A DNA stretch of 62,053 nt from Candidatus Zixiibacteriota bacterium. GTDB lineage: Bacteria; Zixibacteria; MSB-5A5; SM23-73-2. Position 1 is the stretch's first letter. Every line of letters starts with the position of its first letter. The translations under genes were made by a program, and so were the position numbers. The stretch is taken from NCBI GenBank assembly GCA_030615745.1, contig JAUWYR010000009.1, positions 1 to 62,053 of the forward strand, read 5' to 3'. Shown in pieces: positions 13,592-21,060 of this stretch. The notes below the pieces were generated by a model. The model did no database searches and was not told the DNA's origin. It saw nothing but the letters and a program-made list of their open reading frames with translations.

Positions 13592-16500
13592 TTATCTCGA
13601 TGCCTCGGCATTAGGAAATGCCGAGGAAAAGCTTTTGCAAAGATAAGAAGAAATCTTAGCTTGACTTGCCCCCAGCTTCTCAAGCAAAAACAAGACTTCT
13701 GCTGCATCATCATATTCCAATTCAGGATCAGCAGCCAGCTCAGGATTGCGAGAACCTTTAAGGATAGCCTGCAATTTAGAAATCAATGGCCTTAATGATG
13801 GATCTATTTGAGGATCGCTCGCTAGTTGCGACAGACGATTTGCCATCTCCTTTGTCTTGTTATCTTGAATTGCCTGCCAGAAAGCAAGACATAGGCGCCC
13901 GCCCGGATCATGGTTTTCCCCGCCGTCCCGGCGGTAAGCAAGATATAGCTTAATAGCCATCTGCCACGCTCGGGCTACCGCTTCCTGATTGCCTTGAGCC
14001 TGTTCGATTAGATGCAATATTGCCCAGGCTTTCCAGGGATTAGTAGTATGGCCATAAGGTTTTATACACTCAAGTGATCGTTGAATCTCCTCGCGAGCTT
14101 CATCATATCTCTTAAGTAACATCAATGGAATAGCTAAACCATAACGCGCGAGTCCTTCACTTTTGATATTCTTAATTTCAACATTTTTATTCGCAGCTTG
14201 TCGATAAAATATCACAGCCTCCTCGAAACGGCCCATTCCATTGTAAAGGTTGCCCAAGTGTAGTAAAGACGTGGCCTCTCCTGCTGCGTCCTTTTGCTGC
14301 ACCTTAATGGCCAGCGATTGCCGATAGGCATTTTCCGCTGCTTCAAATTGATTTGCTTTTTCATGAACCATGCCAATCTGATGCCACGCAACGGCAACCA
14401 TCTTAGGTTCGCCAAGATTTTCGAATATTTGTCTCGCTTCGTCATAAGCTTTGAGGGCTTCATCATAGCGCCGTTGAGCCAAACGTACCGCTCCAAGTTG
14501 GCCTTTTCCAACAGCAACTTCTCTATTATCTTTCAATTCTCGCGATCGCTTTACAAGTTCTTCATAAACAGCAGCAGCTTCCTCCAATCGTCCAAGTTCT
14601 ATTAGACATCCTCCCGTTTCTTCAAATGTAAGTGCTACCATTCTTGAGGCAGCCATAACTCCCTGATCTGCGAGAAGCTGAGAACGTTGGTATGTCTCAT
14701 TAATTGGTTGAAGTGCGGCTTCAGCAGCGCCTCCTAATCTCATTACACGCCCAAGCAAAAAATAAGCCACAGCTGTATCATAATCTGCTCCTGAATAAGC
14801 TCCTTCACCAATCTGTAAACATTTATCCAGCAGTGCCTGCGCATCCTGCAATGCCTGAGGCAAATTTCCACTGCCTAATATTCTTTCAATCTCCATTCTC
14901 GATGATTCAAATCTGGTATGGCTCCAATCCCCTAATTTTACCGTTTCAGCTTCCCGAATCGCCACTACCTGAGCCAGAAGGTGTTGTCTACCCAATGGTG
15001 CAATCAATTGTTCAAGCCTTGTAGCCAGGTCTACGGTGGTCTCTGGTTCACCCTGCGCTTGTACATATTCCAGCAGTCGCATCAGGTTTGGCAATTCCAG
15101 CAGCGTTAATGTTGCAGAAAGTTGGGCATCTTTGAATTGCTGATCGTATAAGTAGTAACTCAATTGCTTCATACTCTCAACCCATCTTGCTGTGCTGCTG
15201 GTGCGTGCAGTTTGGTCCAATTCCTGCCACAGGTAGGGGCACAGCGCGGGGTGAAAAAGTAAGAAGCCATAGGGCTTTGGCTCAGCCAGACCAATTTCCA
15301 CTAATTCACGAATTAGCAAATCTCTTTCTTCATCAGTTAGTTCTAATACTTCTTTCAGCGTGAATAAGTCTGCACCTCCCTGAAACACGCCCAGCGCCTT
15401 GATTTTCTCTCGTGATTTGGGTGACAGCCTGCGTAAGGAAAGCTCCACGCTGGCGAATAGGGAGCATTCCCGTTCGTTGGGGTATTTCTTGTGCAGTTCA
15501 GCCATTAAACGACTCAGGTTATCGGTGGTGGGTTGGACGCTAAATTCGCTGATATAGGGTGCCAAAAGCACCAGGCTGCGGGCATGGCAATTTACGGCTT
15601 CTACCAGTGCTTCTATTTCTGGTTGGGTATTGCCAGATTCATCTTCTTTGGGCGCTAAATTTTGGACGGTCATGGCTTGGTGCACTAATTCAATTGCGTC
15701 TTGTTTGATCAAGCGTCCGAGAATTACCCTCTGGAACTTGGTATCAAATGGGGCAGGCATGACTTCGCGAGAGGTGAATAGCAGACGGGTGCCATCAACT
15801 GCCAATAGTTTTTTGCAGAGGTAAAAAAATGTCTTCAAAGCTTCAGGCTCGAACCTGGCTATTTCTGCCAGGGTGGAGTCGGTATTGCTTGCTGCTGGGG
15901 GGAGGATGCTTTCGATATTATCGAGGATAATAAGGGTACGATCGTTCTTCAACTCACGTTCAATGGGGTGCAAGGCTTTGGTCAACAAGTCTTCAGGAGA
16001 ATATTCTGCTACAGAATAGTTGGGAATAAGCTGCTTACCAATTCTATCCACTACGGTACGTACATCATGAACATCTTCAAAGCAAACAAAAGCTCCCCTT
16101 TGAAAACGGTTGGTACGTATTAACCAGCGCGCCAGCTCTGCTGCCAAAGTAGTTTTTCCTTCACCCCCTTGGCCGCACAAAACAGCATAAGGCTTTTGCG
16201 CGAGCAAACGCTCCAATTTCAGAAGTTCCCTGCTGCGCCCTACAAAATGGTGTTCTGGAGTTGGGGGCAACTTGCCGAAACGATTTTCCAGAGCTTTTTT
16301 GTCAATGGATTCTATCTCCCTGGAAGGCACTCGAGTGAGCAGCTGTAGGTCATCCTCTTCCTGGTAAAGCACCGGCACGAACCAGTCCTGCAAGTCTAAG
16401 CTGCCGGCTCCAAATATTTTGATGCGAAAACTGTCGGATTTCAAGGTAAGCTGTCCAGCCAACATAGCTTCACCTACACGAGCACCAGTTGCCAGTTTTT

Positions 16501-18049
16501 GGTAAAAGCTTTCCACAAATCGGCGGGCAGTTTCTACCAGCACCGAATGGCTCATAGCCACGACTGAGGCAACGCCTTCATCCAATAAAGCAGCTGCTAC
16601 CGAAGCTGTGGGATCTTGTTCAGCTTTAGCAGTTTCACAGGCTTCAAGAAAAAACAGGGGGATACGATGATCTCTGATAACAGCAGCTAACTCCTTGGCA
16701 TCAATTATCTGCGAACGCCTCTTTTCCAATTTTTGGCTGTCTTGTGGATCTTCAAAGCAAAGACCACCCAATCCCAAATCCTTGCGAAACACACCATGAC
16801 CATTAAAATGCACCACATGGTAAGGAATTCCTGCCTCCCGTGCTCGCAACAATTCTTTTTCAAGAGCCGGAAAAGTCGGCGGTGAGAGCACAGTAAGTTC
16901 TGCCAATTTGCCCAAGCTTTCCAGCGCGGTGACCAACGGCAGAGCACTGACCCGGTGATCGATATATCCTGCTTTTTCATCTTCAGGCCTTGGACTGACC
17001 AGCAAAATGCGTATGGGTGACTCAGCCACGATTCCTTCAAAGGCTTTTGTGTTGGGCAAGCGTCTTCGTGCTTGCACTGGCTTCGCACCATGGAATAGAT
17101 AACTTCTGCCATCATGCAAAAGTTCCCATGGCAGGGTTAGCAGCAAAGTGGCAGCTTCGCCGGCCTCAGCCTGTTTCTTCGTGTCAGCGCCTTTTACTAA
17201 TTTCGAATCAACGAAAACAGTAAAGCGTCGAGCTGCTCCGGTTTTTGCTGTTTCCCAGGCAATCAGCACGTTACGAACTGATTCATCATTTAAAACAGCA
17301 TCATAGAGTGCTTTTCCCCATTTAGGCAGTTTTGTTTCTACGTTTTGCGCGCGTTCTTTGAATACTCCTGTGGGCCACATGTAATACCGTTCAAGGTACC
17401 AGCTCAACTCTTCTGCTTCAATCGGACCAAGGGGGGAGGTGAATGTGAATCTCACTTTGCTGGCGACTTTACGTTTTCCAGGCTCACTGGGGATGTAGTT
17501 TAATCTTGCTGTTGCCTGCGCTCGGCGAACACCTTCCTTTTCAAAAATGCATGGATCGGTAAGGTCTAAAAGTAGCTCTTCTTGAGGTTTTTCCAGAGGT
17601 CTACGCATGGGTTGAAGATCATCAGGAAGCCGATCACCTAATGCAGCCAATATTTGAGGCATGGCTTCACTGATACCTCCGGGACCAATTTGAATCTTTA
17701 TTGCAAGAGGTTCTTCTTTAAAATACAGTTTTAATGCTTCTGGTTCAACACCCTCTAAAAGAAGAGGAATCACTTGGTAATCACCAGCACGTTTTTTCTT
17801 GACTCTCAGTGCATATTTTGTTTCCTTCAAAACCCATGGGGAATTAAAAGCGTTAATGCTGAGCACAACAATAAATGCACGGGCTTGTTCAATAGCCTGC
17901 TTTATCTCAGGCTCCAATTCATCGCCAGGTGCTAACTCCCGCGAATCAATCCAGGTTGCCAACTTCTGGATTTCCAAGCTCTCGCGAAGAGCTTTTACAA
18001 ATTCTTTATCTTTGCTGCTGTGGGAAATGAAGATTTTATTTTTAGTCAT
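13592..18049 (-). CDS. TIR-CHAT-STAND ATPase-TPR conflict/defence protein
   Basis: 1485 residues. A TIR domain at 5-125 opens with KIFISHSSKDKEFV and has the likely NADase Glu at position 76 (WVLKE). A CHAT caspase-like protease domain at about 290-560 has the catalytic dyad H418 (HFNGHG) and C471 (FFLEACETA), preceded by the family's LPWELL motif. A STAND/NB-ARC-type ATPase starts at FVGRSREL (602), with P-loop GQGGEGKTT (626-634), Walker B LIILD (706-710) and a sensor RLLFTSRE near 755-762. A winged-helix-like part follows, then TPRs (about 1090-1400). Families of this build are ligand-triggered switches in bacterial immunity and cell suicide; here two effectors sit on one switch. No partner gene is adjacent. 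Base composition is clearly richer in GC than the flanking genes, suggesting transfer. The ATG has AAAGG upstream. The C-terminal tail is encoded by a palindromic repeat. Confidence 0.88.
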   Translation of the reverse strand: MTKNKIFISHSSKDKEFVKALRESLEIQKLATWIDSRELAPGDELEPEIKQAIEQARAFIVVLSINAFNSPWVLKETKYALRVKKKRAGDYQVIPLLLEGVEPEALKLYFKEEPLAIKIQIGPGGISEAMPQILAALGDRLPDDLQPMRRPLEKPQEELLLDLTDPCIFEKEGVRRAQATARLNYIPSEPGKRKVASKVRFTFTSPLGPIEAEELSWYLERYYMWPTGVFKERAQNVETKLPKWGKALYDAVLNDESVRNVLIAWETAKTGAARRFTVFVDSKLVKGADTKKQAEAGEAATLLLTLPWELLHDGRSYLFHGAKPVQARRRLPNTKAFEGIVAESPIRILLVSPRPEDEKAGYIDHRVSALPLVTALESLGKLAELTVLSPPTFPALEKELLRAREAGIPYHVVHFNGHGVFRKDLGLGGLCFEDPQDSQKLEKRRSQIIDAKELAAVIRDHRIPLFFLEACETAKAEQDPTASVAAALLDEGVASVVAMSHSVLVETARRFVESFYQKLATGARVGEAMLAGQLTLKSDSFRIKIFGAGSLDLQDWFVPVLYQEEDDLQLLTRVPSREIESIDKKALENRFGKLPPTPEHHFVGRSRELLKLERLLAQKPYAVLCGQGGEGKTTLAAELARWLIRTNRFQRGAFVCFEDVHDVRTVVDRIGKQLIPNYSVAEYSPEDLLTKALHPIERELKNDRTLIILDNIESILPPAASNTDSTLAEIARFEPEALKTFFYLCKKLLAVDGTRLLFTSREVMPAPFDTKFQRVILGRLIKQDAIELVHQAMTVQNLAPKEDESGNTQPEIEALVEAVNCHARSLVLLAPYISEFSVQPTTDNLSRLMAELHKKYPNERECSLFASVELSLRRLSPKSREKIKALGVFQGGADLFTLKEVLELTDEERDLLIRELVEIGLAEPKPYGFLLFHPALCPYLWQELDQTARTSSTARWVESMKQLSYYLYDQQFKDAQLSATLTLLELPNLMRLLEYVQAQGEPETTVDLATRLEQLIAPLGRQHLLAQVVAIREAETVKLGDWSHTRFESSRMEIERILGSGNLPQALQDAQALLDKCLQIGEGAYSGADYDTAVAYFLLGRVMRLGGAAEAALQPINETYQRSQLLADQGVMAASRMVALTFEETGGCLIELGRLEEAAAVYEELVKRSRELKDNREVAVGKGQLGAVRLAQRRYDEALKAYDEARQIFENLGEPKMVAVAWHQIGMVHEKANQFEAAENAYRQSLAIKVQQKDAAGEATSLLHLGNLYNGMGRFEEAVIFYRQAANKNVEIKNIKSEGLARYGLAIPLMLLKRYDEAREEIQRSLECIKPYGHTTNPWKAWAILHLIEQAQGNQEAVARAWQMAIKLYLAYRRDGGENHDPGGRLCLAFWQAIQDNKTKEMANRLSQLASDPQIDPSLRPLISKLQAILKGSRNPELAADPELEYDDAAEVLFLLEKLGASQAKISSYLCKSFSSAFPNAEASR
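13597..13626. repeat. Palindromic repeat, copy 3 of 3, forming the 3' end of the TIR-CHAT gene
   Basis: CCTCGGCATT/AATGCCGAGG hairpin (13603-13626) with the CTCGATGC-type arm beside it. Read on the minus strand, it supplies the last eight codons (FPNAEASR) of the 1485-residue protein. Confidence 0.7.
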
Positions 18050-18463: not shown

Positions 18464-19315
18464 ATGAAAATAAGATTTGAAAAACTTCAAGCTTTGGGCA
18501 ATGACTATATTTTCATAGATTGTGTCCGCCAGACCTTAGGCAAAATAGACCTTTCTTTACTTTCAAAAAAAATATGCGATAGGAATTTCGGGGTGGGCTC
18601 TGATGGCTTGATTTTAATAGAGTCGGAGAAGAGAACAAGATTTCGGATGAGGATGTTTAACCCTGATGGTTCAGAGGCTGAGTTGTGCGGAAATGGAATC
18701 AGATGTTTTTCCAGATATATTTTTGAATCCGGACTTTCCAGAAAAAAAACACAAAAAATAGATACAAAAAAAGGTGTCATCAAAACCGAGATTTTGTCTT
18801 CTTCTTTTGAAAAATTTTTTGTGAAAGTTGATATGGGGAAACCGTTATTAGAGGCTAAAGAAATCCCGGTTAAAAGCAAGCAAAAATTTTTCATCCAGGA
18901 GAAGATAAAAGTTGGTAAAAAGAAGGTTCTGGCAACCTGTGTTGCTATTGGCAATCCTCATGTAGTAATTATTGTAAAAAATTTTCCAGAAGATTGGAAA
19001 GAGATCGGTTCAAAAATTGAAAAGGATAAAATGTTTCCAAAAAGAACCAATGTGGAATTTGTGAAAGTGAAGGGCAGAAAAAGAATTGAACTTCGAGTTT
19101 GGGAAAGGGGTGCTGGAAAGACTTTAGCTTCAGCTACTGGTGGATGTGCAGCTCTGGTCGCCTGTGTCTTGAGCGGTAATACTGATCCTGAAATTGAGGC
19201 TTTATTTGAAAAGGGAAGTCTAAAGATATTCTGGGATAAAGACGAAAATCACATATTCGTAGAAGGTCCTGCTGAGCGTGTTTTCTCAGGTGTTTTTCTT
19301 TTTAGAAATCCCTAA
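18464..19315 (+). CDS. dapF: Diaminopimelate epimerase, with second catalytic Cys replaced by Ser
   Basis: 283 residues, a normal DapF length. DapF converts LL- to meso-diaminopimelate for lysine and peptidoglycan. The first catalytic cysteine is C75 in NPDGSEAELCGNGIRC. The second half shows NPHVV, RTNVEFV and VWERGAGKT as in the family. The usual ACGTGA that carries the second catalytic Cys reads ASATGG here, with Ser at residue 223 (TCA, 19130-19132). C228 aligns with the non-catalytic Cys of GACA. The Glu-Arg pair for substrate binding is kept. Either a serine-assisted variant, a related racemase/epimerase activity, or reduced function. argS follows on the same strand 47 bp later. Confidence 0.88.
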   Translation: MKIRFEKLQALGNDYIFIDCVRQTLGKIDLSLLSKKICDRNFGVGSDGLILIESEKRTRFRMRMFNPDGSEAELCGNGIRCFSRYIFESGLSRKKTQKIDTKKGVIKTEILSSSFEKFFVKVDMGKPLLEAKEIPVKSKQKFFIQEKIKVGKKKVLATCVAIGNPHVVIIVKNFPEDWKEIGSKIEKDKMFPKRTNVEFVKVKGRKRIELRVWERGAGKTLASATGGCAALVACVLSGNTDPEIEALFEKGSLKIFWDKDENHIFVEGPAERVFSGVFLFRNP

Positions 19316-19362: not shown

Positions 19363-21060
19363 ATGAACAGATTTGTTGAAGAGATTAAAGAAATTTTAAA
19401 AACAGAAGTTGATCTATCTGAGGAGGAGATTGAGAGAATAATTGAGATTCCTCCTGAGGAGAAGTTGGGGGATTATGCTTTCCCTTGTTTTATCTTAGCA
19501 AAAAGGTTAAAAAAATCACCGGAAAAAATCGCATCTAATCTATTGGAAAAACTTAAGCCAAAAGATTTGATCGAAAAGATATATTCAATAGGTCCTTATG
19601 TTAATTTCAGGGTGAATAAAAAGAAATTAGCTGAGTTTGTCCTAACCGATATTTTTGAAAAGAACAAATCCTATGGCAAGGATATTTTAGGAGAAGGCAA
19701 AACCATAGTGATAGATTTTTCCTCCCCTAATATTGCCAAGCCTTTTGGAGTTGGGCACTTGAGATCCACAGTTATAGGCAACTCCCTCTATAAGATATTT
19801 GAACACTTGGGTTATAAATGCATAGGAGTAAATCATCTTGGAGACTGGGGCACCCAGTTTGGAAAGCTCATCGTTGCATATAAAAACTGGGGAGATGAGA
19901 AAAAACTTTCATCGGACCCGATAATGACTTTGTTTGATCTGTATGTTAAATTTCACCAGGAGGCAGAAAAAAAGCCTGAATTAGAAGATGATGCAAGATC
20001 CTGGTTTAAAAAGCTTGAGAATGGGGATGAAGAAGCAAAAAAGATATGGCAGAGATTTAAAGACTATAGCTTAAAGGAGTTCGAAAAGATTTACCTGATG
20101 TTAGAGATCTCATTTGATTCTTATGCAGGAGAAAGCTTTTATAATAAATATATAGACCAGACTATAGAAGAAGTCCAGAAAAAAGGTCTGGCTGAAAAAA
20201 GTCAGGATGCCTTGGTGGTTAATCTAAAAAAATTTAATCTTCCGGTTTGCCTTTTGAGAAAAAAGGATGAGGCAACCCTCTATGCAACCCGGGATATAAC
20301 AGCAGCTATTTACAGATATAAAACTTACAGATTTCATAAGCTTTTATATGTGGTTGGATCTGCACAGAAGCTCCATTTTCAACAGGTTTTCAAAGTATTG
20401 GAGCTTATGGGTTATCCCTGGGCAAAAGATTTGGTCCATGTTGATTTCGGCTGGATAAAGTTTGAAAAAAAGATTCTGTCAACAAGAAAAGGAGATGTCA
20501 TTTTTCTGGAAGATGTTTTGAAAAAGTCGATCGAAATAGCCTTGGATATAATTCAAAAGAAAAATCCAGATTTAGAGAAAAAAGATGAAGTAGCTTTCGA
20601 GGTTGGCATTGGTGCTGTGGTATTCGCTGATCTGTCAACTAAAAGGCAAAAGGATATAAATTTCGACTGGGAGGAGGTATTGGATTTTGAGGGACAGACA
20701 GGTCCTTATATCCAATACACCCATGCGAGGTTGTGTAGCCTTATAAGAAAATATGGGAAACCTGTAAAAAAGGATGTCGATTTCTCTGTTTTTTCCTTAG
20801 AGGAGGAATATTCGATTATAAAAAAATTGGACGATTTTCCAAGAAAGATAAAAATAACAGCTGAGATGTATGAGCCCTCGATTTTGTGTTCCTATCTTTT
20901 AGATTTGTGCTCAGTTTTCAACAGATTTTATCAGAAAGAAAGAATTATAACAGATGACAAAAACTCAACGGATTCAAGGATTTTTATGATCAAAGGGGTA
21001 AAGACAGTGATTGAGTTAGGATTAAATCTTTTAGGGATAAAAGCGCCGGAAAGAATGTGA
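19363..21060 (+). CDS. argS: Arginine--tRNA ligase
   Basis: 565 residues, class I synthetase. The N-terminal Add-1 domain covers about 1-110. The HIGH-like motif is GHLRST within SSPNIAKPFGVGHLRST, and the KMSKS-like loop is LSTRKG, degenerate as usual in ArgRS. The C-terminal anticodon-binding DALR domain includes TGPYIQYTHARLCSL and ends LLGIKAPERM. It charges tRNA-Arg. ATG start without a clear Shine-Dalgarno; probably co-transcribed with dapF. The stop codon is followed at once by a 7-bp tandem array. Confidence 0.95.
   Translation: MNRFVEEIKEILKTEVDLSEEEIERIIEIPPEEKLGDYAFPCFILAKRLKKSPEKIASNLLEKLKPKDLIEKIYSIGPYVNFRVNKKKLAEFVLTDIFEKNKSYGKDILGEGKTIVIDFSSPNIAKPFGVGHLRSTVIGNSLYKIFEHLGYKCIGVNHLGDWGTQFGKLIVAYKNWGDEKKLSSDPIMTLFDLYVKFHQEAEKKPELEDDARSWFKKLENGDEEAKKIWQRFKDYSLKEFEKIYLMLEISFDSYAGESFYNKYIDQTIEEVQKKGLAEKSQDALVVNLKKFNLPVCLLRKKDEATLYATRDITAAIYRYKTYRFHKLLYVVGSAQKLHFQQVFKVLELMGYPWAKDLVHVDFGWIKFEKKILSTRKGDVIFLEDVLKKSIEIALDIIQKKNPDLEKKDEVAFEVGIGAVVFADLSTKRQKDINFDWEEVLDFEGQTGPYIQYTHARLCSLIRKYGKPVKKDVDFSVFSLEEEYSIIKKLDDFPRKIKITAEMYEPSILCSYLLDLCSVFNRFYQKERIITDDKNSTDSRIFMIKGVKTVIELGLNLLGIKAPERM

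What the first reader, a model, noticed from the sequence alone, without database searches (positions are those of the whole stretch)
19064..19165. DapF with the second catalytic cysteine replaced by serine
DapF works with a cysteine pair. C75 is present, but the ACGTGA motif reads ASATGG with Ser223 (TCA). In the structurally related proline racemase family, a Cys-to-Thr change at one of the pair turns a racemase into a dehydratase, so this may alter the reaction rather than merely weaken it. It is the only dapF in view and sits next to argS.
Basis: partly seen in the sequence, partly recalled or inferred. Interest (0 to 1): 0.6.

Follow-up and report, generated by a model that had tools for sequence, protein, structure and literature searches.

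The report
DapF enzyme with natural catalytic serines
In a whole little-known bacterial phylum, the enzyme that normally flips one carbon of a cell-wall amino acid using two cysteines has one or both cysteines replaced by serine while its binding pocket is kept, in bacteria that also lack the usual genes for making that amino acid.

Summary
The 283-aa ORF at 18464-19315 is the only DapF homologue in a 98.6% complete genome. Cys75 is TGC; the second catalytic position is Ser223 (TCA, 19130-19132), in ASATGG. It is not a sequencing error: an independent species of the same genus (75% identity) has Ser there too.

The pattern covers the phylum (inferred to be Zixibacteria). Among 87 readable DapF sequences the pair is Cys/Ser in 17 (including the window's order), Ser/Ser in 54, Ser/Cys in 4 and Cys/Cys in 12. 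No third residue occurs at either site. DAP-contacting residues are conserved, selection is purifying, and the Cys/Ser state changed several times.

The pathway is also odd: no dapB in 133 genomes, no dapA over cut-off and no Ddh in 39, yet MurE carries the meso-DAP motif. A full-score LysA occurs only where the second position is Cys.

Best reading: a DapF-derived enzyme still acting on DAP or an isostere, with serine taking over an acid/base role. Elimination is possible but not favoured: in the proline racemase superfamily a Ser/Cys pair still epimerises, while a Thr partner marks dehydratases. Activity is untested.

The parts
18464..19315 (+). DapF homologue (283 aa) with a Cys75/Ser223 pair
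   Evidence: TIGR00652 265.1 bits; AlphaFold model mean pLDDT 96.5, best PDB match the Anabaena DAP epimerase 9mro, TM 0.91
18686..18688 (+). Codon 75, TGC: first catalytic Cys, kept (just before helix 76-88)
19130..19132 (+). Codon 223, TCA: Ser where the second catalytic Cys belongs (just before helix 224-236)
19127..19144 (+). A222-S-A-T-G-G227, the ACGTGA-equivalent motif
18500..18502 (+). Asn13, contacts the proximal amino group in Anabaena DapF
   Evidence: Alignment; contact role from PMC12039745
18659..18661 (+). Asn66, distal amino-acid contact
18953..18955 (+). Asn164, distal carboxylate contact
19049..19051 (+). Asn196, distal carboxylate contact
19103..19108 (+). Glu214-Arg215, distal amino group and carboxylate contacts
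19363..21060 (+). argS, conserved downstream neighbour
   Evidence: TIGR00456 541.6 bits; synteny

Best explanation
This is a conserved, functional offshoot of DapF in which serine replaces cysteine at the second catalytic position (here) or at both (most of the phylum). SHOWN: the substitution, its conservation and repeated change, purifying selection, the intact DAP-binding pocket, and the lack of dapA/dapB/ddh next to a meso-DAP-type MurE. INFERRED: the enzyme still binds DAP or an isosteric diamino-dicarboxylic acid such as lanthionine; Cys75 and Ser223 at the two helix N-termini pass the alpha proton across, with Ser acting as the hydroxyl acid/base as in a natural Ser/Cys proline-superfamily epimerase; and it makes, probably slowly, the meso form for MurE, from substrate that is scavenged or made by another route. 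The slow rate may be tolerated because no LysA drains meso-DAP into lysine in these lineages.
For: Only Cys or Ser occurs at both positions in 87 in-phylum sequences, with apparent Ser-to-Cys returns (G059, and probably G109) inside Ser/Ser clades, so the two residues look interchangeable. N13, N66, G76, N77, N196, E214 and R215 are invariant and N164 and T225 at least 90% conserved in a 40-sequence alignment of Cys and Ser types; they match the DAP contacts of Anabaena DapF. dN/dS by NG86 is about 0.03-0.19 in close pairs. MurE of the window's genome has DNPR and GKGHEDYQ, as meso-DAP MurE does. The fold is that of DapF for both the Cys/Ser and a Ser/Ser protein. A Ser93/Cys236 4-hydroxyproline 2-epimerase exists in the related superfamily. 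Full-score LysA: 10 of 16 sequences with second-position Cys, 0 of 71 with Ser.
Against: Engineered Cys-to-Ser mutants of this fold are nearly dead: under 0.1% residual activity in PddB, turnover greatly reduced in F. nucleatum HisR. A natural Ser/Ser epimerase of this fold is not known to me. Without dapA/dapB no source of LL-DAP is visible. Family f6 keeps MurE but has no DapF. The LysA association rests on few independent contrasts (2 agree, 0 disagree, 3 uninformative), and several Ser/Ser families keep a divergent LysA-family protein below cut-off. No activity data exist.
Confidence: 0.45

Rival explanations
1. The substrate pocket is kept but the chemistry has changed: with one Cys base (Cys/Ser) or none (Ser/Ser) the enzyme catalyses one-base chemistry such as elimination or isomerisation on a beta-substituted diamino acid (lanthionine, cystathionine or hydroxy-DAP).
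For: Cys/Thr and Ser/Thr proline-superfamily enzymes are dehydratases. Cys-to-Ser glutamate racemases still eliminate chloroglutamate. No dapA/dapB, so LL-DAP may not be the substrate.
Against: Thr never occurs at either position. A Ser/Cys epimerase exists. Ser/Ser has no Cys base, and no new acidic or basic residue common to all Ser types was found. Cys and Ser states interchange within clades.
Confidence: 0.2
2. Substrate switch: like F. nucleatum HisR (annotated DapF in an organism without the DAP pathway), the protein racemises a different amino acid, perhaps in step with the aminotransferase encoded just upstream in most genomes.
For: HisR precedent. A KATII/LysN-like aminotransferase gene lies directly upstream of dapF in most genomes, and trp, aro and argS genes follow. 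An orthologue is elsewhere in the window's genome. No DAP pathway.
Against: The residues that hold the distal amino acid of DAP are conserved. The protein scores far above the DapF cut-off, and its best structural matches are true DAP epimerases; HisR and CntK rank far lower.
Confidence: 0.17
3. Catalysis is lost and the protein is kept for another role, for example as a binding or RppH-stimulating partner, as E. coli DapF forms a complex with RppH.
For: Loss of both thiols in most lineages; dapA and dapB missing; a DapF-RppH complex is solved (6d13, listed).
Against: A non-catalytic protein should also show Ala, Gly or Thr at the two sites and drift in the substrate pocket; neither is seen in 87 sequences. 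RppH contact residues were not examined.
Confidence: 0.13
4. A decaying gene or a base-calling error.
For: The second Cys is essential in textbook DapF.
Against: Fixed in independent genomes, TCN codons with varied third bases, low dN/dS.
Confidence: 0.01

Closest known systems
Canonical diaminopimelate epimerase DapF (TIGR00652; 9mro Anabaena, 3ejx Arabidopsis, 1gqz H. influenzae)
   Same: Fold, length, DAP-binding residues, first catalytic Cys, 42% identity to the best structural match
   Different: Second catalytic Cys is Ser (both Ser in most of the phylum); no dapA or dapB in the genome
Engineered H. influenzae DapF C217S (2q9j) and C73S (2q9h)
   Same: Same residue state at the second (or first) position, found in nature here
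   Different: Those are laboratory mutants; this is an evolved, conserved state
Ser/Cys 4-hydroxyproline 2-epimerase (Avi_0518, B9JQV3) and Ser/Thr trans-3-hydroxyproline dehydratase (Avi_7022, B9K4G4), proline racemase superfamily (PMC4113996)
   Same: Natural Ser in place of a catalytic Cys in a related fold
   Different: Different family and substrate, about 10-15% identity; Ser at the first position, not the second
F. nucleatum HisR (PMC11602996)
   Same: DapF homologue kept in an organism without DAP biosynthesis
   Different: HisR has both Cys and a different substrate; its C67S and C209S mutants are much weakened
PhzF isomerase
   Same: DapF-like fold; PF02567 matches at 27.5 bits against a 27-bit cut-off
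   Different: DapF motif and DAP pocket are intact; TM about 0.7 at 10-18% identity

Membership tests
DapF (DAP epimerase) | Curated family score | tested here: met
   TIGR00652 265.1 bits against a cut-off of 114.65
DapF (DAP epimerase) | DapF fold | tested here: met
   Model mean pLDDT 96.5; 9mro TM 0.91
DapF (DAP epimerase) | DAP-binding residues | tested here: met
   N13, N66, N77, N164, N196, E214, R215, T225 present (contacts)
DapF (DAP epimerase) | Pair of catalytic cysteines | tested here: not met
   Cys75/Ser223: file as a DapF-derived variant, not a canonical DapF
DapF (DAP epimerase) | DAP pathway context (dapA, dapB, dapL or ddh, lysA) | tested here: not met
   dapA, dapB, lysA and ddh not found in the window's genome by family search; meso-DAP-type murE present
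DapF (DAP epimerase) | Epimerase activity on LL-DAP/meso-DAP | not testable with these tools
   Needs purified enzyme
Proline racemase superfamily | Sequence and fold membership | tested here: not met
   Only 10-15% identity to its solved members, ranked well below all DapF structures
Histidine racemase (HisR/CntK) | Closest structural kin and both catalytic Cys | tested here: not met
   HisR/CntK at rank 43 and below, 14-17% identity; only one Cys
PhzF | Catalytic Glu45-type residue without the DapF motif | not tested
   Only a borderline PF02567 score; the DapF motif is intact

The most novel reading that the evidence does not exclude
A whole phylum makes (or salvages) the meso diamino acid of its cell wall without DapA and DapB, using an epimerase of the DapF fold with serine in place of one catalytic Cys (here) or both: natural serine-based members of the DapF family, linked to a non-canonical source of DAP or of an isostere such as lanthionine.
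Probability: 0.25. Interest if true: 0.85.

Novelty: new variant of a known kind. Interest (0 to 1): 0.6.

Why it matters
DapF is a textbook two-thiol enzyme and a drug target, and Cys-to-Ser is the standard way to disable it. A lineage that has fixed Ser at one or both positions, repeatedly and under purifying selection, is a natural test of whether a hydroxyl can do the thiol's job in this fold. It also points to a phylum whose MurE calls for a meso-diamino acid while dapA, dapB and ddh are missing, which makes the source of that amino acid a direct question.

Tried and rejected
(1) Sequencing error or decay: rejected. (2) A second dapF or a Ddh in the genome: none. (3) DapL: only aminotransferases below the TIGR03542 cut-off; the one at G000 C61 scores 466 bits to PRK09276 (cut-off 507) and sits beside murQ, unresolved. 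(4) AAA lysine pathway by LysX: over cut-off in 1 of 133 genomes only. (5) A new base compensating for the lost thiol: no column common to all Ser types found; Cys38 is invariant in Ser/Ser but also common in outgroup Cys/Cys enzymes. (6) A trp or aro pathway role from synteny: the aminotransferase-dapF pair is the most constant part and the genes behind it vary, so this was not taken as function. (8) Literature searches found no paper on natural Ser-type DapF nor on DAP synthesis in Zixibacteria, within an open-access library only.

Full report
Observation. The window holds one dapF homologue at 18464-19315 (+), followed by argS at 19363-21060. The protein passes the DapF equivalog cut-off by a wide margin (265.1 against 114.65 bits), and no other PF01678 protein was found in the 98.55% complete genome. 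The first catalytic Cys is present (Cys75, TGC); the second is Ser223 (TCA, 19130-19132) in ASATGG.

Not an error. Its DapF is 75% identical and has Ser at the same place. I collected DapF from 90 loci across the phylum. Among 87 rows with both positions readable there are 17 Cys/Ser (families f1-f3, the window's order; f8; f13; one in f17), 54 Ser/Ser (f4, f7, f9, f10, f15-f17), 4 Ser/Cys (f11, G059) and 12 Cys/Cys (f5, f12, f14, f18, f19). All 79 DapFs examined from outside the phylum are Cys/Cys. All Ser codons at position 223 are TCN with varied third bases.

Evolution. In a tree built without the two catalytic columns, the phylum's DapFs stand apart from the 18 outgroup rows on a supported branch (SH-aLRT 99), which fits vertical inheritance from a Cys/Cys enzyme; at least 3 changes at position 1 and 6 at position 2 are needed. 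The window's order and f8/f13 lie in separate clades, and G059 (Ser/Cys) and G109 (Cys/Ser) are nested in Ser/Ser clades. dN/dS by NG86 is about 0.03-0.19 in the pairs where dS could be estimated. No residue other than Cys or Ser was seen at either site.

Pocket and fold. Residues that contact DAP in Anabaena DapF (PMC12039745) are present: N13, N66, G76, N77, N164, N196, E214, R215, T225; only the Gly after the second Cys, a backbone contact, is Ala here. Most are invariant and the rest at least 90% conserved across 40 Cys- and Ser-type sequences. Models of the window protein (pLDDT 96.5) and of a Ser/Ser relative (95.1) both match DAP epimerases best (9mro, TM 0.91 and 0.90), with C75 and S223 at the N-termini of two helices. 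The match list includes the laboratory mutants C73S and C217S of H. influenzae DapF, which these proteins resemble at those sites.

Pathway. dapB: 0 of 39 genomes (TIGR00036) and 0 of 133 (PF05173). dapA: no genome of 39 over cut-off, one contig-edge fragment below it. Ddh: none over cut-off. DapL (TIGR03542): none over cut-off. Control genomes rang in each search. LysX: over cut-off in 1 of 133. murE matches in all 39 relatives and in the window's genome carries DNPR and GKGHEDYQ, the meso-DAP type. LysA above its cut-off occurs only in f5, f11, f12 and f18, all with Cys at position 2: 10 of 16 Cys rows, 0 of 71 Ser rows. Rows are related, and independent pairs give only 2 in favour, 0 against and 3 silent, so this is a pattern and not a proof. 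Several Ser/Ser families keep a LysA-family protein at 160-275 bits whose activity is unknown. In f5 and f12 lysA lies in a cluster with what look like an alanine racemase, an NlpC/P60-type endopeptidase, an LD-carboxypeptidase and a dipeptide epimerase (names from my reading of the sequences, not from a family search), which would fit peptidoglycan salvage.

Neighbourhood. dapF directly follows an aminotransferase gene in most genomes (that cluster occurs near dapF in 66 of 85 genomes), with trpE-trpG-trpD, a major-facilitator transporter, argS and aroA behind it in varying combinations. The aminotransferase resembles PH0207 and LysN of the KATII type. In the window's order dapF is unlinked from it; an orthologue lies at G000 C65 (L320).

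Mechanism. I think it most likely that the protein still binds DAP or an isostere and moves its alpha proton, with Ser223 as a slower acid/base partner to Cys75. The literature cuts both ways. Engineered Cys-to-Ser mutants keep under 0.1% activity in PddB (PMC8225329) and turnover is greatly reduced in HisR (PMC11602996). But a natural Ser93/Cys236 enzyme of the proline racemase superfamily is a working 4-hydroxyproline 2-epimerase, and it is a Thr partner that marks dehydratases (PMC4113996). What the substrate is, and where it comes from without dapA and dapB, is not shown. F. nucleatum, which lacks the DAP pathway, uses lanthionine and has a DapF homologue that turned out to be a histidine racemase, so a substrate switch must be kept in mind; the intact distal-amino-acid pocket argues against it here.

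Verdict. Real, conserved, and a new variant of a known kind. Activity is untested.

Noticed in passing
window 13592-18049 (-): A 1485-aa protein with TIR (residues 6-104), CHAT protease-like (302-539), NB-ARC/AAA and TPR regions, transcribed divergently from dapF; looks like a STAND-type TIR-CHAT protein, possibly antiphage defence.
   Followed up: partly
Phylum genomes G000-G132: No dapB in 133 genomes and no dapA over cut-off in 39, although MurE is of the meso-DAP type where examined; the source of the wall diamino acid is unknown.
   Followed up: partly
G013, G022, G029, G036 (family f6): These 92-94% complete genomes have MurE but no DapF match at all.
   Followed up: no
L204 and L205 (G059): Two DapF copies, both Ser at position 1 and Cys at position 2, inside a Ser/Ser clade: an apparent Ser-to-Cys return.
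   Followed up: no
L168:8074-10193 (G000 C61): A DapL-like aminotransferase (466 bits to PRK09276, cut-off 507) directly beside murQ; a similar pair is seen in L170.
   Followed up: no
L151 (G032) and similar loci in f10, f15-f17: LysA-family proteins at 160-275 bits, below the LysA cut-off and with no better NCBIfam match where tested; possibly a divergent decarboxylase.
   Followed up: partly
DapF residue 38 (window 18575-18577): Cys38 is invariant in all 54 Ser/Ser sequences and frequent in the rest; role unknown.
   Followed up: no
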